Shown here one piece after another: positions 1,443-22,783 of a stretch of 23,061 bases of DNA (positions are counted from its first letter, which is position 1; each line of letters begins with the position of its first letter). The stretch lies in the IMG/VR virus record IMGVR_UViG_3300036854_000009, positions 1-23,061 of that record; one strand, written 5' to 3'. A program made the position numbers and the translations under genes. The notes below the pieces were generated by a model. It saw nothing but the letters and a program-made list of their open reading frames with translations, was not told the DNA's origin and did not search any database. The DNA comes from a virus.

Positions 1443-2650
1443 GCTGGGATACCGGCATGAAACTGGAACAGCCGGTACCAGACGTGGCGTTCCAGGTGGA
1501 AGTGCCAGCAGAGATGTTAGAGGGAATGACGGCAGGGGGCCAAATCGCCCCGCGTATCTCAAGGAAAGAGGCCTTACAGGTTCCCGCTGTCCTGCGGTCC
1601 CGAAACCTGATTGCCGGCACACTGGCCCGCCTACCGATTCATATCCGGGACAAGAATCACAAGATCGTGTCCCCAACAACCCTGCTAGACCAGATCGACC
1701 AGGATGTCCCCAATGTCGTCACATTCGCCCAGACCTATGAAGACTTGCTCTTTGAGGGCGTCAGTTGGTGGAGGGTCACAGAATTTGGTTGGCACGGCTT
1801 CCCTACGTTCGCCACCCACGTAGACACCAGTCGTGTGTATGTCTCAGGCTGGGTGCCCCCGGTCAATGGGAGTAGCCCGGGAATGGCACCAAATGCACGG
1901 GTATACATCGACGGCATATCGGTTCCCGATAATGAGGTAATCCGGTTCGACTCACCCAACCCCCCGCTACTCGTCCACGCTGCAAGGGCCATCAGGGCTT
2001 GTCTTGCCCTCGAGAAGGCCGCTGCGCGGTATGCCGAAGAGCCGGTGCCGCTGGGCTACTTCACCCCAAAGGAAGGCCTACGTCCCAGGGAGTCCGAGGA
2101 CCTTATCCAGGGGCTTCTAGACAAGTGGGAGCGAGCACGGGCGCGGCGAGTGTGGGGATATGTCGGAGCCGCCTGGGATGTCAAGACGCTCCAATTCAAC
2201 GCCGAACAGATCCAGCTTGCAGACCAGCGCCAGCATGCAGTGCTGGAAATTGCTAGGGCGGCCGGCGTAGATCCCGAGGACCTGGGCGTTTCGACAACTA
2301 CGCGGACCTACCAGAACGCCGAACAGCGCAGGCTGGATTTACTTGACTTCACACTCGCCCATTACATGGCTGCGGTTGAGGAGCGCCTATCTATGCGCGA
2401 CATTCTCCCCCGGGGCTACCAGGCCAAGGTGAACCTTGATGGATTCCTCCGTTCGGATACGAAGACCCGGATGGAGGCCTACAAGATCGGCCGTGAGGTA
2501 AACGCCTACACCGACGAGGAAATCAGAGAACTCGAGGATCGCCCGCCACTCACACCATCGCAGCGTGCAGCTAATCAGCCGCCTACTGCACTTCCGGCAC
2601 AAGGGCCGACACAGGGGGTAGCCAATGCCGTGGCACGTCGCGAAACGTGA
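1439..2650 (+). CDS. Portal protein (HK97 family)
   Basis: This 403-aa protein would form the dodecameric ring at the capsid vertex through which DNA enters and to which the tail attaches. Family-typical stretches are visible: an N-terminal helix VPAVLRSRNLIAGTLARLP, a central LLFEGVSWWRVT, the acidic EVIRFDSPNP, a long stem region LALEKAAARYAEEPVPLGYF, and the late segment EIARAAGVDPEDLGVS followed by TYQNAEQRRLDLLDFTLAHY. Length is at the short end for HK97 portals. The ATG overlaps the terL stop as ATGA, so the two are probably translationally coupled. The 3' end overlaps the next gene by 26 nt. The order terL-portal-protease-capsid fits the standard module. Confidence 0.93.
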   Translation: MSWDTGMKLEQPVPDVAFQVEVPAEMLEGMTAGGQIAPRISRKEALQVPAVLRSRNLIAGTLARLPIHIRDKNHKIVSPTTLLDQIDQDVPNVVTFAQTYEDLLFEGVSWWRVTEFGWHGFPTFATHVDTSRVYVSGWVPPVNGSSPGMAPNARVYIDGISVPDNEVIRFDSPNPPLLVHAARAIRACLALEKAAARYAEEPVPLGYFTPKEGLRPRESEDLIQGLLDKWERARARRVWGYVGAAWDVKTLQFNAEQIQLADQRQHAVLEIARAAGVDPEDLGVSTTTRTYQNAEQRRLDLLDFTLAHYMAAVEERLSMRDILPRGYQAKVNLDGFLRSDTKTRMEAYKIGREVNAYTDEEIRELEDRPPLTPSQRAANQPPTALPAQGPTQGVANAVARRET

Positions 2651-4574
2651 CGGAAGGTTTTGTGTAATCAAAGATGAAGATGAATCAGTCGAGAAATGTC
2701 ATCCGACTAGAGCTGAGGCCGAGGCACATATGAAAGCGCTGTATGCGAACGAGCCAAGAACAGAAGCAGTATCCACGATCACATTCGTTGACGACGAAGA
2801 GGTCGCTGCGTCATTCAAGGCCGACATCGAGAAACGAACAATTACTGGTCTGTTGGTCCCGTGGGGCAAGGTTGCCCGTGCGGGGTTCGCGAAGTGGCGA
2901 TTCGCTAAAGGATCGCTGCATTGGGCCGCCGAGCAGCGGGTCAAGCTGAACCTTGGGCACGAGCGCAAAGAAACCGTTGGGGTGGCAGTCCGCCTTCAGG
3001 ACACCTCCTCTGGGCTTACGGGTACCTTCAAAATCGCCCGAGGGGACGAGGGAGATCGGGCGCTCTCGCTGGCGGAAGACGGTGTCCTCGATGGGTTCAG
3101 CGTAGAGGTGGATTTCGATGAGGGGGACGGATGGCAACCTGATCCGTCCAACGAAGAAGTCCGCTTGGTCAGTAGAGCGGCGCTCAAGGCTGCGGCGCTC
3201 ACTGGGTATCCGGCATTCGATGATGCTCGAGTGGAGCGCATCGCGGCCGCACGTCAGGAAGGAATGAAGATGGGAGATAAGGACAAAGAGCAAGGCGATA
3301 CGCAGGATTTGGAGGCAGACGCGGGAGTGATCGCATTCGAGACAGCGATGGACCGTCTCGCCGGCAAGGTTACCGAGTCGCACGCCAGGCTAACCGAAGA
3401 GCTCACGCAGTCAATCGGTGAGTCAATCTCCGAGGGCGTGAAGACTGCGCTTGAGGGGATTAGCGACCCTCAGCGTGGATCGGTGAAGGCGGCAAGGTAC
3501 ACCGTGACCCGCGAAGAGCCGATCTATCGGTTCGACGGTACGGGCCACTCGGTAGTTCGTGATGCATGGTACGCCGCTACACAGCGGGAAGAGGATGCAA
3601 TCGAGCGCCTTCGGAAGTATCGGAAGCAGACGGAGGAAGTCGCTACCTTGTTCTCGCAGAACTATAGCCTGAACTTCACTCCGCAGAGTACCTCCACGGC
3701 CTCGCAGGTTATCCCACCGGGCTACCGTCCCGAGCTTTACGTGCCACAGCTTCAGCAACAGCGGCCGTTCGTGGCGGCTGCATCCCAGGGATTGCTTGCG
3801 AATGCTACCCCGTTTACGGTTCCGACATTCACGTCCGTCACCACGGGCTCGGCGGACCACGTCGAGGGTACGAACCCTTCGGATGGTTCGCTGTCGTTCG
3901 GCACAAAGACAGTAACCCCGCAGGCGATTTCCGGGCGCATCGTTCTGACTCGTGAGATCGTTGACGCCTCGAATCCGGCGATTGACCAGATCGCTCTTAC
4001 GGCAATGCGGGAGTCCTACAACCGCCAGACCGAGGTTAAGGTCTACACGCTGCTCAACGGTGCGAACGGTTCGGGTGGAACGATCACCGCCGGCTTCGTG
4101 CCTTCGGGTGCCCAGGCCGTGACGGTGGCTGGTGGTACGGACAACCAGGGCCTGGTCAAGCAGATCAGGACATCCCTGGCCGCCTATCCGTTCAACCGTT
4201 TCCTTTCGCCGACCGTCGCCCTCATGGGACAGGGAGCAACGGGACGGTTGGCGGCTGCGGTGGACACCACACAGCGTCCGCTCTTCCCGTACCTCGGGGC
4301 GAGCAACGCCGTGGGGACCGGCAATTCCATCGACAACGCCTGGAACGTGGACGGGTTGCCCTTCGTGGCTGCTTGGGCCGCGACCGGCACGGCTGCTGGT
4401 GACACTCAGATCTTCATCCTCAACAGATCTGACCTGTGGGTCTGGGAATCACCGCTGCTGTCGTTCAGGTTCGAGGAGAAGCAGGGACCGGCGAATATCG
4501 AGCTCAACATCTTCGGCTATTTCGCCACCCACTTGCTTCGTCCGGTGGGCCTGTCCGGTATCCGAATCACATAA
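2625..4574 (+). CDS. Capsid maturation protease fused to HK97-fold major capsid protein
   Basis: One 649-aa frame carries three parts. Residues 2-43 hold a small Cys-containing module starting PWHVAKRDGRFCVIKD, a type often seen beside phage head genes. Residues about 55-210 form a U35/S78-type prohead protease: KLNLGHERKETVGVA gives the likely catalytic His112, and LDGFSVEVDF gives Ser159. A charged helical linker (about 217-300) resembles the scaffolding delta domain. Residues about 345-649 are a HK97-fold capsid (VIPPGYRPELYVPQL, GRIVLTREIVDAS, ending in GYFATHLLRPVGL). Such fusions are known in actinophages. An internal AGGAAGGA at 3256-3263, 6 nt before ATG 3270 (Met216), may allow separate synthesis of the 434-aa capsid part. 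ATG 2625 overlaps portal by 26 nt. Confidence 0.92.
   Translation: MPWHVAKRDGRFCVIKDEDESVEKCHPTRAEAEAHMKALYANEPRTEAVSTITFVDDEEVAASFKADIEKRTITGLLVPWGKVARAGFAKWRFAKGSLHWAAEQRVKLNLGHERKETVGVAVRLQDTSSGLTGTFKIARGDEGDRALSLAEDGVLDGFSVEVDFDEGDGWQPDPSNEEVRLVSRAALKAAALTGYPAFDDARVERIAAARQEGMKMGDKDKEQGDTQDLEADAGVIAFETAMDRLAGKVTESHARLTEELTQSIGESISEGVKTALEGISDPQRGSVKAARYTVTREEPIYRFDGTGHSVVRDAWYAATQREEDAIERLRKYRKQTEEVATLFSQNYSLNFTPQSTSTASQVIPPGYRPELYVPQLQQQRPFVAAASQGLLANATPFTVPTFTSVTTGSADHVEGTNPSDGSLSFGTKTVTPQAISGRIVLTREIVDASNPAIDQIALTAMRESYNRQTEVKVYTLLNGANGSGGTITAGFVPSGAQAVTVAGGTDNQGLVKQIRTSLAAYPFNRFLSPTVALMGQGATGRLAAAVDTTQRPLFPYLGASNAVGTGNSIDNAWNVDGLPFVAAWAATGTAAGDTQIFILNRSDLWVWESPLLSFRFEEKQGPANIELNIFGYFATHLLRPVGLSGIRIT
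3256..3272 (+). promoter_or_regulatory. Internal ribosome-binding site and in-frame ATG within the protease-capsid gene
   Basis: AGGAAGGA (3256-3263) precedes ATG at 3270-3272 with a 6-nt spacer. A second in-frame ATG lies at 3264. It falls exactly between the protease and delta/capsid domains, so initiation here would yield a protease-free 434-aa capsid precursor. The sequence pattern is seen directly; its use is inferred. Confidence 0.5.
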
Positions 4575-4643: not shown

Positions 4644-4943
4644 ATGGCAGCAATTACAGTTGCAGCAAAGGGCGGCGCAATGACGATGGCCGCAGCCACG
4701 GGTGGTGGTGACACCGTTGCGGCGACCGGCATCAATGCCGCAGGATGGCAGTCACCCGGTACCCCGGTACTCGTCGCCACTGTGGGCGCCAACTCCACGA
4801 TCATCACGATTGACGGGGTAGCGCAACCTGCATTCATCTCGGGGACCGTGGTGTATCCACTCAACCCAGGTGTCTATGCGCGTTCGCTCACGGTCACCTA
4901 CAACCAGGTGGTCGGCCTGACAGTCGGTGCGGCGGTTCTCTAG
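4644..4943 (+). CDS. Small Ala/Gly/Thr/Val-rich protein, possible capsid decoration protein
   Basis: This 99-aa protein has a low-charge beta-rich composition. A strand-like pattern runs through VLVATVGANSTIITIDG and ends in RSLTVTYNQVVGLTVGAAVL. No signal peptide or membrane segment is convincing. A strong AAGGAGG (4633-4639) lies 4 nt before the ATG, as expected for a highly made virion protein. The first gene after the major capsid is commonly a head decoration protein in siphoviruses, and size and composition fit that role. This is positional inference; no specific family is recognised. Confidence 0.65.
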   Translation: MAAITVAAKGGAMTMAAATGGGDTVAATGINAAGWQSPGTPVLVATVGANSTIITIDGVAQPAFISGTVVYPLNPGVYARSLTVTYNQVVGLTVGAAVL

Positions 4944-7395: not shown

Positions 7396-8991
7396 ATGCA
7401 CCAACAGCATGGGAAGACCAGGCATGGCATCTCAAGTCGGCTATTTGGGCGACGGCTGCTCGTAGCAATATTCGCGATGAGTCTGCTGGTGATGGCTGCC
7501 AAGCCAGCATTGGCGCTCACTGCTCCGGTGCTGTCTTATGACACGGTCACCCAAACATCGGTACATCTGACGTGGACGGATGCCGGGAACGAGCAGCAAT
7601 ATCGGGTCTATAAGAACTCGGTGCTGCTCATCACGCTAGGAGCCAATGTGCTCTCCTACACGGCAACCGGTCTGACGCCAGCAACCACCTATGCCTTCCG
7701 GGTGGATGCGAAGAAGGGCGGACAGATTCTGCCATCCAACACGGTTACGGTAACCACGCAATCGCCTCCACCGCCTGAATGTAGCGATGGTATTGACAAC
7801 GACGGAGACACGTTCATCGACTACCCGGCCGATCCAGGATGTACGTCGGCCTCAGACACAACTGAGTCTCCCAACCCACCGCCCCCAGTCGAGTGCAATG
7901 ATGGCATCGACAACGATGGTGACACGCTTATCGATTACCCTGCCGATCCTGGTTGCACATCTGCGACGGATACGACCGAATCTCCGAATCCCCCGCCTCC
8001 GACCTGCACGGGCGTCGATGTGCCGTACAGCGCGACGGTCGGCTATCTGAACACGATCATCCCCGGTAACGGTGCGCAGACCTACTGCCTCGCCGCCGGT
8101 CAGTACGAGATGGGAACCGCGTCCCTGAGCTTCGACAGCGGCGACAGCATCATTGGACCGTCCGTCTCCTTTGGTCCGAAGGGCGAGGTCTATGCGCAGG
8201 CGTTCATCCGCAGCTCATCTGGTAATGGAGTCATTGCCGCGGGCTCAGGAGACGTCTCGTTAACCGTAGAGAATCTTGACCTCAGCGGTGCGGGGGGTGG
8301 TCACTACGGCGCAGGGTGGACAGACCGCGCGGACGGCATTAATGGGAACTTCGAGACGACCATCTACCTGACGGTCCGCAACTCGCGCATCCACGACAAC
8401 GCCAACGATGGTATAGGTCACATCGGTCGGGGCATGGTCGTCGAGAACTCAGAGATCGACAACAACGGATCGGGGCACGACGGGTACGACGCGGGGATCA
8501 AGACGGTCCACTATGCCGTGGTCCACAACACCTACTTTCACCACAACTGGAACGGCTTTTGGTGGGACTGTGACGCTCCGGGTGGCGAGATTACGGGCTC
8601 ACGGTTTGAGGCTCAGGAGCGGTCGGGCGTCTACGTTGAGATCAGCGCGGGTGATGACTCTCCTCGCCCCGTTGACCCGGGGCAGACTCGTGGTTTCCGC
8701 ATCCTGAGCAACACGCTTGACGGGAACAACACGGGTAACAACGGGTTCCACGCGGGCGTCCTGGTCATCTCCTCGAGGAGCGTGCTGATCGACGGCAACA
8801 CCGCGACGAACAATCTGCACGCCGATATCCGGGTGGACAACGATAGCCGTCAGTTCAACGGACACGCGGGATGCTCGTCCGGGTTCACCGTGAACAATGT
8901 CACGGTGTCTAACAACCAGTACGGGCCACTTCCGCTCCTTGGAACCAGCCTGCCTGGGACCACTTGGACGAACAACACGAAGATCCTGTAG
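7396..8991 (+). CDS. Exported Fn3/calcium-repeat/beta-helix protein
   Basis: This 531-aa protein begins with a signal peptide: basic n-region to RR20, hydrophobic LLVAIFAMSLLVMAA, and a likely cleavage after PALA40. A fibronectin type III-like domain follows (about 42-122: VLSYDTVTQTSVHLTW, YRVYKNSVL, LTPATTYAFRV). Next come two tandem 38-residue Asp-rich units (128-165, 166-203) with core DGIDNDGDTxIDYPADPGC, a thrombospondin type 3-like calcium motif, separated by Pro-rich linkers. The rest (about 204-531) is Asn/Gly-rich with IHDNANDGIGHIG and VVENSEIDNNGSG repeats of a right-handed parallel beta-helix (pectate-lyase-like). AGGAGGA (7381-7387) lies 8 nt before ATG. Bounded by non-coding gaps, it looks like a cassette. 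It may be a lysogenic surface protein or an exported depolymerase; no catalytic site is claimed. Confidence 0.8.
   Translation: MHQQHGKTRHGISSRLFGRRLLVAIFAMSLLVMAAKPALALTAPVLSYDTVTQTSVHLTWTDAGNEQQYRVYKNSVLLITLGANVLSYTATGLTPATTYAFRVDAKKGGQILPSNTVTVTTQSPPPPECSDGIDNDGDTFIDYPADPGCTSASDTTESPNPPPPVECNDGIDNDGDTLIDYPADPGCTSATDTTESPNPPPPTCTGVDVPYSATVGYLNTIIPGNGAQTYCLAAGQYEMGTASLSFDSGDSIIGPSVSFGPKGEVYAQAFIRSSSGNGVIAAGSGDVSLTVENLDLSGAGGGHYGAGWTDRADGINGNFETTIYLTVRNSRIHDNANDGIGHIGRGMVVENSEIDNNGSGHDGYDAGIKTVHYAVVHNTYFHHNWNGFWWDCDAPGGEITGSRFEAQERSGVYVEISAGDDSPRPVDPGQTRGFRILSNTLDGNNTGNNGFHAGVLVISSRSVLIDGNTATNNLHADIRVDNDSRQFNGHAGCSSGFTVNNVTVSNNQYGPLPLLGTSLPGTTWTNNTKIL
7777..8004 (+). repeat. Tandem 114-bp calcium-motif repeat (two copies)
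   Basis: Copies at 7777-7890 and 7891-8004 encode near-identical 38-residue units differing at only a few residues. Each has the Asp/Asn ladder DGIDNDGD, PADPGC, and a PNPPPP linker. Many synonymous differences exist between the copies, so the duplication is not very recent or was domain-shuffled. Confidence 0.85.
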
Positions 8992-17596: not shown

Positions 17597-18169
17597 ATGC
17601 GAGTCAACGAGTTCAGTTCCAAATACCTCAACCAGACCAAGTCCCATAGCGGGCCTCGCCCCCCAGTTGTTATCAACCTAGTCGTTATCCACGACACCGA
17701 GGGGACGACTGCCGAGGGTGGGGCCTATACCCTCACGCACCGCACGGACGCTTCTACGCATGTAGTGGTGGACGATGCTCACACCTTCCGGGTCCTGCCC
17801 GACACCATCATCGCCTGGTGCGTGAAGTCCTATAACACGCCCACGATCCATGTTGAGCAAGCCGGCCTAGCTTCCTGGTCCACAATGACATGGCGGGACC
17901 GCGTCAAGACAATCCGCCGTGCGGCCTGGTGGGCCGCCTACTGGATGCGTGAGTACAACATCCCCTTCGTATTCCGTTCCGTAGCGGATCTGAATAGCGG
18001 GAGGATCAGCGGCTACACCAGCCACAACAACCTCTCACTATCCACTCTCTCGGATAGCACCCACACCGACCCAGGCCCGAACTATCCCTGGGCCATGCTG
18101 AAGACGCTCATCACGTACTACCGGGCGCAGATGCGGATGGGCCGACTTCGTAAACCCCGTGCGTTGTAG
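17597..18169 (+). CDS. N-acetylmuramoyl-L-alanine amidase endolysin (amidase_2 type)
   Basis: This 190-aa enzyme would cleave the amide between MurNAc and L-Ala to lyse the cell. Motifs of the Zn amidase fold are visible: VVIHDTEG (His32), THVVVDD (His55) leading the central strand, ITAWCV-like IIAWCVKSYN, VEQAG, and the late HTDPGPNYPW (His156, Asp158) with the second Zn-ligand site. There is no signal peptide, so release needs a holin. The C-terminus is short and basic (MRMGRLRKPRAL) with no recognisable wall-binding domain. It opens the lysis module after a 24-nt gap. Confidence 0.88.
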   Translation: MRVNEFSSKYLNQTKSHSGPRPPVVINLVVIHDTEGTTAEGGAYTLTHRTDASTHVVVDDAHTFRVLPDTIIAWCVKSYNTPTIHVEQAGLASWSTMTWRDRVKTIRRAAWWAAYWMREYNIPFVFRSVADLNSGRISGYTSHNNLSLSTLSDSTHTDPGPNYPWAMLKTLITYYRAQMRMGRLRKPRAL

Positions 18170-18172
18170 GCC

Positions 18173-18598
18173 ATGGAACCGCTTCCCATCCTGTTCGGCT
18201 TCCTGGGAGCCGGCGGCCTAGCCGTATTGCTGAGAATCATCCTGGGATATGCGTCGAAGACGCAGTCCACGTTCCAGGGCGCCCTCCAGGACCAGCGGAC
18301 GTCGTACCAGGCATTCTTGGAGAACCAGCGGAAGGAGTTCGAGACGTTCCTCGACAACCATATGAGCAACACCACGAAGGCCCTGGACAACCTGGTCCAC
18401 GCCACCGAGCGTCTCAGTGACAACGCCTCCAAGGAACATGAAGAGACCAGACAGCTTATAAGAGACCAAGCCAGGATTGTCCGCGATGGTCATCGAAAGC
18501 TGGGGCAGTTGCTACAAGCTAATCGCAACACGGCAAAGGTTGGCCGTGCCCTTGATGAGGTGATGGTCGAGCAAGAAGAAAAGAACAATGAACGGTGA
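18173..18598 (+). CDS. Membrane-anchored coiled-coil protein
   Basis: This 141-aa protein has one N-terminal hydrophobic helix (about residues 5-25, ILFGFLGAGGLAVLLRIILG) followed by about 110 residues of charged helix. Leu recurs every 11 residues at 38, 49, 60 and 71 in units LQDQR, LENQR, LDNHM and LDNLV. This points to a hendecad (right-handed) coiled coil rather than heptads. It starts 3 nt after the lysin stop and overlaps the next gene by 11 nt. Similar anchored helical proteins lie in actinophage lysis cassettes. A holin-partner or envelope-spanning role is possible; the function is unknown. Confidence 0.75.
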   Translation: MEPLPILFGFLGAGGLAVLLRIILGYASKTQSTFQGALQDQRTSYQAFLENQRKEFETFLDNHMSNTTKALDNLVHATERLSDNASKEHEETRQLIRDQARIVRDGHRKLGQLLQANRNTAKVGRALDEVMVEQEEKNNER

Positions 18599-18848
18599 TG
18601 TTCGTCAAAAGCTGAAGGAATGGACTATCGCCCTCATCGTGCCGCTGATGTTCGTAGCCGCATGGGTGTCGGTGCAGTCTGTTAACAATCAGCAGCAGGA
18701 GCAGAGACTGAAGATTCAGTGCTCTATCCAGCAGCAGAATATCGAGCAGCTCCATGCCCTGAAACAGATAGCTAGGGAACTGGGATTGCCGGGAGCCTTT
18801 GAGATACCACCGAGGAGTGCAGAATGCGCCGAATTAGATGGACAGTGA
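18588..18848 (+). CDS. Small single-pass membrane protein of lysis module
   Basis: This 86-aa protein has a short basic N-terminus, one transmembrane helix (about 13-31, TIALIVPLMFVAAWVSVQS), then a Gln-rich helical outer part (NNQQQEQRLKIQCSIQQQN) and the end ARELGLPGAFEIPP...AEC with Cys45 and Cys80. This topology (in-out) is typical of small actinophage proteins beside the holin. A spanin-like or holin-modulating role is possible, but no lipobox is present. It overlaps neighbours on both sides (11 and 25 nt). Confidence 0.7.
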   Translation: MNGDVRQKLKEWTIALIVPLMFVAAWVSVQSVNNQQQEQRLKIQCSIQQQNIEQLHALKQIARELGLPGAFEIPPRSAECAELDGQ

Positions 18849-19351
18849 GCACCGTCCTAGCCCTGCTGTTGTTCGGGGCGTTCGTGCCGTCGAGTCCAAT
18901 AGCTGTTGGTGTCGGATCAGACTGCACCAAGGTCGGCACCAAGTACAAGGACGAACTGGCGGGCTCGAACCGCATGGACATCATCTGCGCTCTTGGTGAC
19001 GACGACTACGTCGCTGGCCGGGGTGGGCCGGATGTTCTCCGGGGTGGCCTCGGTAACGACACCGTTGTTGGTAGCGGGGGGCAGGATGCCCTCAGGGGCG
19101 GAGCTGGAGACGATCGGATTTTTGCATCGGCCGACGGGAAGGTCGATCATCTCGCCGGCGGCCCCGGGATAGACAGCTGCTACGGAGACCAAATCGACTT
19201 CTTCAACGGATGCGAGAAGATCGTTCGCCATACGGCTAGCCCGACCGTAGTAGCTATGGCCCAGGCATTCTCCGGCTCAGTAACAGTAGGCGAGAAGTAC
19301 CAGAAGTGCTTCGCTGCCAACCCGTCCTGCACCGACGCGGACCGGCCATGA
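18824..19351 (+). CDS. Exported RTX-repeat (calcium-binding) protein
   Basis: This 175-aa protein has a signal peptide (MRRIRWTVS, then VLALLLFGAFVPS, cleavage probably near residue 26-30). Five 9-residue RTX-like units follow (about 58-101: DDDYVAGRGGPD, VLRGGLGNDTVVG, DALRGGAGDD), the classic GGxGxD calcium beta-roll. A GIDSCYGDQIDFFNGCEKI segment has Cys119 and Cys130; in all six Cys are present (34, 55, 119, 130, 162, 169). GAGGAG (about 18811-18816) precedes ATG 18824 within the previous gene. It overlaps the next gene by ATGA. Such small exported RTX-like proteins occur in actinobacteria. Its role in a phage lysis block is unknown. Confidence 0.78.
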   Translation: MRRIRWTVSTVLALLLFGAFVPSSPIAVGVGSDCTKVGTKYKDELAGSNRMDIICALGDDDYVAGRGGPDVLRGGLGNDTVVGSGGQDALRGGAGDDRIFASADGKVDHLAGGPGIDSCYGDQIDFFNGCEKIVRHTASPTVVAMAQAFSGSVTVGEKYQKCFAANPSCTDADRP

Positions 19352-19515
19352 CCAAGCACATCGAATCCCTGGAGAAGAAACTCGTGACGCTCATCCGAGA
19401 GTCTGAGCGCCTATACAAGATGCTGGATGAGTGTCTCAAGTCCCGGGAACGGCTACAGCAGGAGATCGAGGACTTAAAGGGGACATTCGCCAAGTACAAC
19501 GACAAGGAGGAGTAG
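19348..19515 (+). CDS. Small coiled-coil protein
   Basis: ATG 19348 (ATGA overlap) gives 55 aa. The whole protein is a charged amphipathic helix: TKHIESLEKKLVTLIRESER, LYKMLDECLKS, LQQEIEDLKGTFAKYNDKEE, with heptad-like Leu/Ile spacing. There is no membrane segment. It ends in TAGTG overlap with the next membrane-protein gene. It may be a regulatory partner (antiholin-like) or an oligomerising lysis accessory. This is inference from position only. Confidence 0.65.
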   Translation: MTKHIESLEKKLVTLIRESERLYKMLDECLKSRERLQQEIEDLKGTFAKYNDKEE

Positions 19516-19658
19516 TGGACGTGATTCGCAAGGCGCTGGTTATCGCGGCGTTGATCCTCGCCGTTCTCGCCCTATTCGGGGCGGAGGTACTGGGCCTTAG
19601 TTCGGTTAAGGAACTAGCACTTGGCCTCGGCTGTCTAGCCGTGGCCTCACTTGTCTAG
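19515..19658 (+). CDS. Small two-helix membrane protein (holin-like)
   Basis: GTG 19515 overlaps the previous TAG as TAGTG and gives 47 aa. Reading from here gives MDVIRKALVIAALILAVLAL, with a first hydrophobic helix (about 6-25), a short polar turn LSSVKE, then LALGLGCLAVASLV as a second helix. Longer frames starting inside the preceding gene look like noise. The size and arrangement match small actinophage membrane proteins next to holins. It may be a holin or a membrane partner of the 70-aa protein that follows 12 nt later. Confidence 0.65.
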   Translation: MDVIRKALVIAALILAVLALFGAEVLGLSSVKELALGLGCLAVASLV

Positions 19659-19670
19659 GGGGATAGACAG

Positions 19671-19883
19671 ATGACCATTCTCGGCAAGTCCTTTACGCAG
19701 GCAGATGCGCGTCGTGTGATCTGGACTGCGATTCAAGCCGGAGTAGCGGTCTTTGTCGCAGCTAGCGTTACCGACGTCAAGACTGCCAAGGTCGCGGCCC
19801 TGGCCGCATTGACCGCTGCCGGTGCTGCTGCGCTGAGCGCGGTGAAGAACTGGTGGTTGACCGACTCAAGCCCAGTCAAGTGA
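19671..19883 (+). CDS. Putative holin
   Basis: This 70-aa protein has a polar start (MTILGKSFTQADARRV), a first hydrophobic helix (about 17-32), a short turn TDVKTAK, an Ala-rich second helix (VAALAALTAAGAAALSAVKN, 41-60) and a short tail. AlSavkN near the end of the second helix is typical of holins from actinophages. Two helices, small size and position after the endolysin fit a pore that releases amidase. Its stop overlaps the next GTG as GTGA. Confidence 0.72.
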   Translation: MTILGKSFTQADARRVIWTAIQAGVAVFVAASVTDVKTAKVAALAALTAAGAAALSAVKNWWLTDSSPVK

Positions 19884-20578
19884 CGGAATACAAACTAGGT
19901 CGAGTCCACGATCCCGAGACACCTCGGGCCATGGCGCTATATCCCGTCAGGGCTGAGACATCCACAAGGCTACGGCGGAAGTGGAATCAGAACGGGGCGT
20001 GGCTAGACCAGGATGGGTACGGGACATGTGTCGGCAATGCTTTTGCTCATCGTAGGGCGGATGGTCCACTGCTGATCGAGGGGATTGACGAGGCCTTCGC
20101 CCAGCAGCTCTACCTGGAAGCATCAGAGTTCTTCTACGGAATCCCCGATACCGACATGCAGAGCGGTACCTCCGGGCTCTCCGCATGCCAAGCCCTGATG
20201 AAGCGGGGAGCCATCGACCGCTACGAGTGGATGACTAGCCCCGAAGCTCTTCGCTACACCATCCTCGAGCGAGGCTCCGTCTGCGTGGGGACGGCCTGGT
20301 ACTCATCCATGTTCGATACCCCACCCGACGGCCTGGGACACAAGTATGTGCGCTACAACCCCGTCTCCACCCGAGTGGGCGGGCATGAGTACCTCATCAA
20401 CGGACTTGACCTGGACCCGCTAGACGGTAGCGAGCCCTATTACCGGATGAAGAACTCGTGGGGCCGGGGCTGGGGGGAGAACGGAACCGCCAGATTCCGA
20501 CTGGCCGATCTCGAGGAACTCGTCTTCACTGGTTGGGGCGATTGTGTCCTCATCCACGAGGTGCCGAGGGCAGCGTGA
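19880..20578 (+). CDS. Papain-family (C1) cysteine peptidase
   Basis: From GTG 19880 (GTGA overlap; GTG 19853 would add nine residues) the protein is 232 aa. The papain catalytic set is complete: Gln44 and Cys50 in WLDQDGYGTCVGNAFAH, His169 in GGHEYLINGLD, and Asn192 in MKNSWGRGWGENGTARF, the hallmark KNSWGxxWGxxG. Length matches a mature C1A domain with no propeptide, and no signal peptide is visible, so it would act in the cytoplasm, after lysis, or in the virion. It sits between holin and small zinc-protein genes and is coupled to both. The substrate is unknown: host wall-associated protein, defence factor or virion processing are all possible. Confidence 0.85.
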   Translation: MTEYKLGRVHDPETPRAMALYPVRAETSTRLRRKWNQNGAWLDQDGYGTCVGNAFAHRRADGPLLIEGIDEAFAQQLYLEASEFFYGIPDTDMQSGTSGLSACQALMKRGAIDRYEWMTSPEALRYTILERGSVCVGTAWYSSMFDTPPDGLGHKYVRYNPVSTRVGGHEYLINGLDLDPLDGSEPYYRMKNSWGRGWGENGTARFRLADLEELVFTGWGDCVLIHEVPRAA

Positions 20579-20775
20579 CCTACCCACCAATCTACGCTTG
20601 CATGGACCCGCTGAATCGAGCGCCTAGTTACGCCGCAGCCCGATGCAGTATCTGCGGATGCGCTACCGATCTGAAGCGAATCGGCATGGAGTTCACCTGC
20701 CGGGGCATGCACCACTATAAGGATTGGGATTTGATCCTTGAGCAGTGGTGCGAGAATGCGGAGCCGGCGGCATGA
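20575..20775 (+). CDS. Small Cys-rich (zinc-binding type) protein
   Basis: GTG 20575 (GTGA overlap) gives 66 aa. Cys residues occur at 9, 24, 27, 29, 42 and 59, with His46-His47. CSICGC and a later TCRGMHH could make a single zinc site. A helix-like end DWDLILEQWCEN follows. It is coupled to the peptidase upstream and to a membrane-protein gene downstream (ATGA). Small zinc-ribbon proteins are common in phages. The function is unknown. Confidence 0.65.
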   Translation: MTYPPIYACMDPLNRAPSYAAARCSICGCATDLKRIGMEFTCRGMHHYKDWDLILEQWCENAEPAA

Positions 20776-20958: not shown

Positions 20959-21141
20959 ATGACTACGCGCACAGCTCCGTGCTGGTGCGCCTCAACCTTC
21001 TTTATGCCGCATGTTCACGAACCAACTGGTGATCCGAATGTCTGCCCCCGATGCGGGACGGTCCGACTCCTCATGCCGTATCCCGAGCCCTACTGTGCGG
21101 GCTGTGGAAGGCAATGGGATTGGGGTCAAGTAATCAACTAG
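20959..21141 (+). CDS. Zinc-ribbon protein
   Basis: This 60-aa protein carries two CxxC knuckles, CPRC (29-32) and CAGC (46-49), spaced like a zinc ribbon, plus an N-terminal CWC (8-10) and HVH (18-20). This gives eight possible metal ligands. ATG 20959 starts 1 nt after the previous stop; its Shine-Dalgarno is weak. It could bind nucleic acid or a protein partner. A phage transcription or replication accessory role is plausible. Confidence 0.65.
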   Translation: MTTRTAPCWCASTFFMPHVHEPTGDPNVCPRCGTVRLLMPYPEPYCAGCGRQWDWGQVIN

Positions 21142-21728: not shown

Positions 21729-22272
21729 CTGGGGGGAACCCCGGCGGGTCTTCGGACTAGACATCGAGGCTAGACCGGGGCCCTGGGGCGGCAAGGATTT
21801 CACGTTCCGCCATATGCTCTCCATCGCCGCTGGTTTTGAGGGCAAGTCCGTCTCCTACATCCCCCCTGGATTCCTAAAGTACGAACTTGAGCGAGTCATC
21901 ATGCCAATGCGCGAGGGCAACCTGCTCGTCGTTGCCCACAATGCCAAGTACGACCTCAGCGGCCTGAACGGAATGATGATGAAGATGGGACTCGAGCCTC
22001 TACCACCCCAACTCGCATGCGACACCTGCGCGGACGTGAAGAAGCACGGCTTCATGTTTTCCAAGAGTCTGGGCAATATGGCCCAGCGATTTGGGGTGCC
22101 GTCCAAGGGACATATGAGCGAGGTGGACTGGGAGGGCGTCTACGAGAACGACCCCGAGGCCCTCGAGAAGCTGCGGATCTATAACATCGGAGACGTGAAG
22201 ACGGTGCTGGCTTTACGGCGGGTGCTACTTGAGCGAGGGCTCCTCAGGCCCCCGCGCACATGGCGACCGTAG
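21709..22272 (+). CDS. DnaQ-like 3'-5' exonuclease (RNase H fold)
   Basis: This 187-aa protein carries the three exonuclease motifs: Exo I VFGLDIEARPG (Asp18, Glu20), Exo II VVAHNAKYDLSGL (Asn78, Asp82) and Exo III YNIGDVKTVLALRR (Tyr158, Asp162). It has no polymerase domain, so it could act as a separate proofreading subunit or recombination/repair nuclease. Cys104-Asp-Thr-Cys107 gives a possible extra metal site. The ATG lies 20 nt inside the previous gene. Its end runs 29 nt into the convergent integrase gene on the minus strand, so this is the end of the plus-strand transcript. Confidence 0.82.
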   Translation: MTTVRTSWGEPRRVFGLDIEARPGPWGGKDFTFRHMLSIAAGFEGKSVSYIPPGFLKYELERVIMPMREGNLLVVAHNAKYDLSGLNGMMMKMGLEPLPPQLACDTCADVKKHGFMFSKSLGNMAQRFGVPSKGHMSEVDWEGVYENDPEALEKLRIYNIGDVKTVLALRRVLLERGLLRPPRTWRP

Positions 22273-22783
22273 GGAGTGCATCCACGGCCCGCCGCTTGTC
22301 CTCTGGCCGTACCGAGGCATACCGATGCGTGGTAGCTAGGTTGGCATGGCCCACAAGCCTCGAGGCCACGGAGACTGGCACCCCCTGATCCAGTAGCCCG
22401 GTGACGAAGCTGGCCCGGAGCATGTGAGCCCGCCTCCGATTCTTGGGTAGGCCGGCATCAGCGGCCGCCCGTTGGACGATCATGGTGAACCACTGGGGGT
22501 GGAAGCCCACCAAGGAATATGCCCGATTGGGTATATCGGGCATTAGTTCCCGCAGGGCCCTCTCGGCCGTGTCGTTCATCTCCACCCACCGAGGCCTATC
22601 CCCCTTGGCGCACCGGATGTAGACCCGCCGCCCCTGCCAGTCGATGTCCTCCGGGGTGATCCCGCAGAGCTCGGAGCGCCTGAGCCCCAGGGCATAGCAG
22701 GCTAGGATCGCCTGGCCGTAGCGGGGGTTTCGAGCACCCGCAGCCCGGACCAGGGAAGCTATTTCCTCCGGTTCCCGATTCAC
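22244..22783 (-). CDS. int: Tyrosine recombinase, catalytic domain only
   Basis: This 179-aa product starts at GTG (22781-22783 complement); a stop lies in frame six codons upstream, so no N-terminal arm or core-binding domain is fused. The catalytic residues are complete: Arg35 in ALGLRRSELCGI, Lys60 in CAKGDRP, His120 and Arg123 in HMLRASFV, His146 in LVGHANL, and Tyr155 in THRYASV. It would cut and join att sites during integration or resolve dimers. The length is about half that of common phage integrases. It is convergent with the exonuclease gene. No attP core is evident nearby. Confidence 0.88.
   Translation of the reverse strand: MNREPEEIASLVRAAGARNPRYGQAILACYALGLRRSELCGITPEDIDWQGRRVYIRCAKGDRPRWVEMNDTAERALRELMPDIPNRAYSLVGFHPQWFTMIVQRAAADAGLPKNRRRAHMLRASFVTGLLDQGVPVSVASRLVGHANLATTHRYASVRPEDKRRAVDALPTVAMCAGA

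What the first reader, a model, noticed from the sequence alone, without database searches (positions are those of the whole stretch)
19880..20578. Complete papain-family peptidase inside the phage lysis module
Gln44, Cys50, His169 and Asn192 are all in classic C1 motifs, including KNSWGRGWGENG. There is no propeptide or signal peptide. The gene is coupled to a putative holin upstream. A cytoplasmic C1 protease made late could attack host proteins, help lysis by cutting wall-linked protein, or disarm a peptide-regulated defence.
Basis: partly seen in the sequence, partly recalled or inferred. Interest (0 to 1): 0.62.

Follow-up and report, generated by a model that had tools for sequence, protein, structure and literature searches.

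The report
Papain-type protease beside phage lysis genes
The phage carries a complete, apparently working papain-family protease tucked directly behind its membrane-hole (holin) gene; such proteases are already annotated in many phages, and this one is an optional extra, most likely helping the cell burst open, though that role is unproven.

Summary
Window 19880-20578 (+) encodes a 232-aa C1A (papain-family) protease with Gln44/Cys50/His169/Asn192. Pfam Peptidase_C1 passes its cutoff, PHROG 16701 'peptidase' gives 9e-31, and AlphaFold (pLDDT 90) best matches xylellain. It has no signal peptide or classic propeptide, but does have a short conserved N-terminal segment. Its GTG start overlaps the stop of a 70-aa two-TM holin-like gene, inside an amidase-containing lysis module.

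It belongs to a known, widespread phage family: 52 phage records, hundreds of IMG/VR stretches, and GenBank labels 'peptidase' or 'cysteine protease'. The catalytic residues are near-invariant. Lysis linkage recurs in unrelated lineages. In Gordonia phages the gene lies between a stand-alone LysA C-terminal domain and the holin. Other lineages carry it beside terminase, tRNA genes or elsewhere.

Near the window, L002 keeps it in the same slot (85% aa, dN/dS about 0.07) although its holin and amidase differ. L218 lacks both holin and protease there, so the gene is accessory. L218 carries a metzincin-like protease in its lysis region instead.

Best reading: an accessory, cytosol-folded endopeptidase freed by the holin, helping degrade envelope or cell protein at lysis (about 0.45). 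Activity itself is likely (about 0.9). New member of a known kind.

The parts
19880..20578 (+). C1A (papain-family, xylellain-like) cysteine endopeptidase, 232 aa; Q44, C50, H169, N192
19671..19883 (+). 70-aa two-TM holin-like protein; its stop codon overlaps the protease start (GTGA)
   Evidence: PHROG 443 holin E=2.1e-5; 2 TM; coupling
19515..19658 (+). 47-aa two-TM small membrane protein; also in L218, where homology to the window stops just after it
17597..18169 (+). Endolysin, N-acetylmuramoyl-L-alanine amidase (Amidase_2)
   Evidence: Pfam 1.1e-11; PHROG 12609 4.8e-26
18173..18598 (+). One-TM coiled-coil protein of the lysis module; L002 has a counterpart at the same place with little sequence similarity
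18588..18848 (+). One-TM small protein of the lysis module
20575..20775 (+). 66-aa Cys-rich small protein, start overlaps the protease stop; conserved downstream in L002 and L218
20772..20957 (+). 61-aa two-TM protein conserved downstream in L002 and L218
19669..20574 (+). Holin+protease block that is absent from the close relative L218, replaced there by a different 60-aa holin-like gene
   Evidence: blastn breakpoints

Best explanation
It is a catalytically competent, xylellain-type C1A endopeptidase. It is made late from the lysis operon by translational coupling to the holin gene, and it folds in the cytoplasm without a signal peptide or large propeptide. Like an endolysin it would reach the envelope only when the holin opens the membrane, and it would act as an accessory lysis factor by cutting proteins of the envelope, or released cell protein, so that the cell and its debris come apart faster. 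Shown by computation: family, fold, conserved active site, purifying selection, gene overlap with the holin, recurrent lysis-cassette position, optional presence. Inferred: activity, late expression, release through the holin, substrate, and benefit to lysis.
For: Active site near-invariant across 206 loci. dN 0.084 against dS 1.2-1.5 between window and L002. AlphaFold pLDDT 90.3, best PDB match xylellain 3ois, TMq 0.71; profile search gives xylellain E=4e-18. Lysis-cassette position in the window and L002, Arthrobacter phage Mufasa8 (holin directly upstream, 4-nt overlap), Gordonia phages Forza, GMA2, Lilbeanie, Cafasso and Sixama, and probably Streptomyces phage ZL12, where the protease is followed two genes on by an amidase-like protein and then a 3-TM protein. 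In viral contigs the next gene is a GH25 (5) or Amidase_2 (3) hydrolase or an r1t holin (1) in 71 loci. In Gordonia phages the gene overlapping the protease start is a stand-alone LysA C-terminal domain: 67.5% and 52% identical to the C-terminal part of Fury and OneUp LysA, and matching the C-terminal region of endolysin PHROGs. Small TM proteins lie directly upstream in 23/73 loci against 150/1103 background pairs, p=2e-4. On the tree the lysis label needs at least 7 changes on well-supported branches and is clustered beyond shuffles. The C1-free relative L218 carries a metzincin-like protease in its lysis region.
Against: Family members lie far from lysis genes in Mycobacterium Bclasvirinae, beside terminase in Streptomyces BillNye and Muntaha, among tRNA genes in Shaeky and Sycamore and next to a phosphoesterase gene in jumbo phages. 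The window protein has no wall-binding or peptidoglycan-hydrolase domain. L218 lacks the gene at the same slot, so lysis does not need it. C1A enzymes are known for cutting L-peptide bonds in proteins, and no C1A peptidoglycan hydrolase was found in the papers searched. The end of a lysis cassette is also a common place for cargo genes (general knowledge). The lysis labels rest partly on seed lysins taken from the same neighbourhoods.
Confidence: 0.45

Rival explanations
1. Cytoplasmic host- or phage-protein protease: it acts inside the cell during late infection (host protein turnover, counter-defence, processing of a phage protein), and its place next to the holin only ensures late expression.
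For: No signal peptide or wall-binding domain. Many relatives lie outside lysis cassettes: right-arm regions, terminase, tRNA arrays. The active site is conserved in those too.
Against: Recurrent coupling to holin or LysA parts in unrelated lineages. Small membrane proteins enriched directly upstream. No partner or substrate gene was found to travel with it.
Confidence: 0.3
2. Accessory cargo gene parked at a tolerant site (end of the lysis cassette) and selected for a benefit unrelated to the infected cell, for example degrading protein in debris or acting on neighbouring cells after release.
For: Presence/absence polymorphism at one slot between close relatives. Scattered positions in different phages. 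C-terminal Pro-rich tails in many relatives.
Against: Tight overlap with lysis genes on both sides in several phages, and position shared with L002 at near-saturated dS.
Confidence: 0.17
3. Virion-associated or assembly protease: packaged in or processing virion proteins.
For: The gene lies in the late operon; some relatives sit beside terminase or portal genes.
Against: The window phage has its own prohead protease (S78-capsid fusion, 2625-4574). No tail or capsid domain was recognised fused to C1 in the loci examined.
Confidence: 0.06

Closest known systems
Phage 'cysteine protease/peptidase' family, PHROG 16701 (e.g. Mufasa8 gp26, Forza gp111, Cafasso gp30, Thonko gp77)
   Same: Same single-domain length, Q-C-H-N order, N-terminal GR..HDPRSRAY motif; E=9.1e-31 to PHROG 16701; similar lysis position in several
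   Different: Only about 27-36% identical; the window and L002 form a long separate branch with a variant N-terminal motif (GRVHDPETPRAM)
Xylellain (Xylella fastidiosa C1A protease, PDB 3ois)
   Same: Best solved structure by profile (E=4e-18) and by fold (TMq 0.71); no large propeptide (from memory of the literature)
   Different: About 16% identity in the fold alignment, longer N-terminus, cellular enzyme; PMC10380794 states that xylellain-type C1A genes were acquired by tailed phages
Mycobacteriophage LysA N4/N5 cysteine peptidase domains
   Same: Papain-like fold, lysis role; remote fold match to Lysin A of MOOREtheMARYer and Indlulamithi
   Different: N4 resembles RipA and N5 a C39-like peptidase / staphylococcal papain-family match, both in multidomain LysA (PMC3314691); the window protein is a stand-alone C1A enzyme

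Membership tests
Peptidase family C1A (papain) | Ordered oxyanion Gln, catalytic Cys, His, Asn | tested here: met
   Q44, C50, H169, N192; conserved 204/204, 204/204, 206/206, 205/206
Peptidase family C1A (papain) | Curated profile score | tested here: met
   PF00112 27.0 bits vs 20.7 cutoff
Peptidase family C1A (papain) | Papain fold | tested here: met
   AlphaFold pLDDT 90.3, pTM 0.90; Foldseek top hits xylellain and cathepsins
Peptidase family C1A (papain) | Peptidase activity, E-64 sensitivity | not testable with these tools
   needs a bench assay
Xylellain-type short bacterial C1A | Closest solved relative is xylellain; single short domain | tested here: met
Xylellain-type short bacterial C1A | N-terminal segment that covers part of the active site | tested here: inconclusive
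   Conserved segment with invariant D11, but the model is weak at residues 11-30 (pLDDT 57-66), and the profile alignment to 3ois does not reach the N-terminus
Phage endolysin (LysA) | Known peptidoglycan-hydrolase domain | tested here: not met
   Only Peptidase_C1 and a sub-threshold C1_2 match
Phage endolysin (LysA) | Cell-wall-binding domain | tested here: not met
   232-aa single domain; in Gordonia relatives a LysA C-terminal domain is a separate upstream gene
Phage endolysin (LysA) | Encoded with the holin in the lysis cassette | tested here: met
Phage endolysin (LysA) | Present in all close relatives | tested here: not met
   Absent at the slot in L218
Phage peptidase PHROG 16701 | Full-length profile match | tested here: met
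   E=9.1e-31, residues 5-226 of 232 vs profile 4-231/234

The most novel reading that the evidence does not exclude
Phages recruit true proteases, of the papain class and, in relatives, metzincins, as a recurrent, interchangeable accessory component of the lysis module, released by the holin to cut envelope protein alongside the peptidoglycan hydrolases. In Gordonia phages the protease would work with a stand-alone LysA C-terminal domain.
Probability: 0.2. Interest if true: 0.6.

Novelty: new member of a known kind. Interest (0 to 1): 0.38.

Why it matters
Phage lysis models consist of holins, peptidoglycan hydrolases, spanins and, in mycolate-bearing hosts, LysB. A protein-cutting protease is not part of them, and the survey of Gordonia rubripertincta lysis cassettes does not mention cysteine proteases (PMC9671378), although GenBank records show one between the LysA parts and the holin in several Gordonia phages. 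If the activity matters for lysis, it would explain a gene that has been annotated but little discussed in many actinophages. Cultured relatives such as Mufasa8 make it directly testable.

Tried and rejected
(1) Whole-family alignment A1 as a scan query failed for lack of a conserved stretch; sub-alignments were used instead. (2) Greedy length-based gene calling gave false opposite-strand genes; replaced by codon-usage scoring. (4) The window holin and the small Cys-rich gene have no match in the phage collection. (5) A genome scan for close bacterial homologues found only short motif matches. (6) A conserved partner or inhibitor gene travelling with C1 across lineages was looked for in neighbour lists and not found. 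(7) The tail motif W..AKG(L/Y) was sought on other phage proteins and is essentially confined to C1. (8) Virion-protease reading set low because the phage has its own S78-capsid fusion.

Full report
Observation. The ORF at 19880-20578 (+) is complete, starts with GTG and encodes 232 aa. Pfam Peptidase_C1 passes its curated cutoff (27.0 vs 20.7 bits), and PHROG 16701 'peptidase' matches end to end (9.1e-31). A sequence search of the PDB finds cathepsins and papains mainly through the His/Asn half. A family profile finds xylellain first (3ois, 4e-18). The AlphaFold model is confident (pLDDT 90.3, pTM 0.90), and Foldseek puts xylellain first, followed by cathepsins.

N-terminus and export. Relatives show no signal peptide (1 of 158 has a hydrophobic N-terminus) and no large prodomain. 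A short N-terminal segment is conserved, however (consensus GR..HDPRSRAY; D11 invariant in 203/203), so 'no propeptide' is right for the classical kind but a short regulatory segment is not excluded.

Local context. The module runs: tail genes, Amidase_2 endolysin 17597-18169, one-TM proteins at 18173 and 18588, an RTX-repeat protein with an apparent signal peptide 18824-19351, a short coiled coil, a 47-aa two-TM protein, the 70-aa two-TM holin-like protein 19671-19883, the protease, a 66-aa Cys-rich protein and a 61-aa two-TM protein. The protease start overlaps the holin stop and has no clear Shine-Dalgarno sequence, consistent with translational coupling.

Close relatives. L002 has the protease at the same slot, with an ATG start aligned to window 19880. 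It is the best conserved gene of the shared segment (85% aa; tail protein 72%; amidase 23%; the holin-like genes are not recognisably related), with dN 0.084 and dS 1.2-1.5. In L218, which is closer to the window over much of the structural module (tape measure 89% nt over 1.4 kb), homology ends at window 19668 and resumes at 20575; a different 60-aa holin-like gene fills the gap. The holin+protease block is therefore an accessory cassette. L218 and the more distant L222 each carry an ORF with HExxHxxGxxH plus a Met-turn-like motif in the lysis region, before the endolysin. Pfam Peptidase_M10 matches are below its cutoff (0.0017 and 0.00017). L222 ends before the C1 slot, so mutual exclusion rests on L218 alone.

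Wider family. tblastn finds 52 phage records, mostly of Mycobacterium, Gordonia and Streptomyces phages plus Arthrobacter and jumbo phages of Xanthomonas and Stenotrophomonas. Three IMG/VR scans found hundreds of further relatives. Catalytic columns are near-invariant; the sole Asn exception is ZL12 (Gln). Contexts differ: lysis cassette in Forza, GMA2, Sixama, Lilbeanie, Cafasso, Mufasa8 and probably ZL12; not so in Bclasvirinae, BillNye/Muntaha, Shaeky/Sycamore and jumbo phages. In viral contigs the following gene is a peptidoglycan hydrolase in 8 of 71 and an r1t holin in 1, and small TM proteins are enriched directly upstream (32% vs 14%, p=2e-4; genes called by my own script, loci not fully independent). 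A quick tree places window+L002 on a long separate branch and needs at least 7 changes of the lysis label on well-supported branches. The label is incomplete, so this is a rough figure.

Gordonia detail. The ~123-aa gene overlapping the protease start in Gordonia phages matches the C-terminal region of endolysin PHROGs 317/1519 and is 67.5% and 52% identical to the C-terminal part of LysA in Fury and OneUp, which show no C1 gene in the fetched flank. LysA is thus split there into a C39-peptidase gene, an amidase or glycosyl-hydrolase gene, and a stand-alone C-terminal domain, followed by the C1 protease and the holin.

Mechanism. Activity is very likely from residue conservation and selection. 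Late expression, cytosolic folding and release at holin opening are inferred from the anatomy. A lysis-helper role is the best contextual inference, but the non-lysis positions of relatives and the natural absence in L218 keep the cytosolic and cargo readings alive.

Prior knowledge. Acquisition of xylellain-type C1A genes by tailed phages is published (PMC10380794), and GenBank records of these phages say 'cysteine protease' or 'peptidase'. The Gordonia lysis survey does not discuss it (PMC9671378). BetterKatz gp29 is described as a cysteine protease-like endolysin (PMC4982276); whether that is C1A was not tested. I therefore file this as a new member of a known kind.

Noticed in passing
L218:7000-7486 (approx.) and L222:11227-11655: Metzincin-like zinc protease ORFs (HEVGHALGLNH, HELGHTLGFGH, Met-turn) in the lysis region, between tail genes and endolysin, of relatives of the window phage; Pfam M10 sub-threshold.
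   Followed up: partly
L004:7600-7968, L005:7606-7977, L010:5603-5974, L013:5507-5890: Stand-alone gene for the C-terminal domain of LysA, annotated 'hypothetical protein' or 'putative lysin', in Gordonia phages with a split LysA.
   Followed up: yes
L007, L047, L054, L077, L080, L091, L095, L200 and others (C1 C-termini): Roughly a quarter of 158 relatives carry a C-terminal extension, usually a Pro/Thr-rich linker plus a short helical-looking tail, several ending in W..AKG(L/Y); nearly confined to C1 among neighbouring phage proteins.
   Followed up: partly
window 18824-19351: Small protein with an apparent signal peptide and RTX calcium-binding repeats (Pfam 1.1e-12) inside the lysis module; homologues in L222 and L221.
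   Followed up: partly
window 2625-4574: Prohead protease (Peptidase_S78) fused to the major capsid protein in one 649-aa ORF.
   Followed up: no
window 7396-8991: Beta-helix protein with fn3 domain and acidic double-disulfide repeats and an apparent signal peptide, in the middle of the structural genes.
   Followed up: no
window 22244-22783 (-): Tyrosine integrase domain (Phage_integrase 1.4e-22) on the minus strand at the right end, suggesting a temperate phage.
   Followed up: no
L008:3906-4001 and 4714-4839; L009:3873-4004: In Bclasvirinae phages outside the lysis cassette the protease gene is flanked by tiny one- or two-TM membrane proteins with overlapping start/stop codons.
   Followed up: no
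window 20575-20775 and 20959-21141: Two small Cys-rich (CxxC) proteins downstream of the protease; the first is conserved in L002 and L218 and unmatched in the phage collection.
   Followed up: partly
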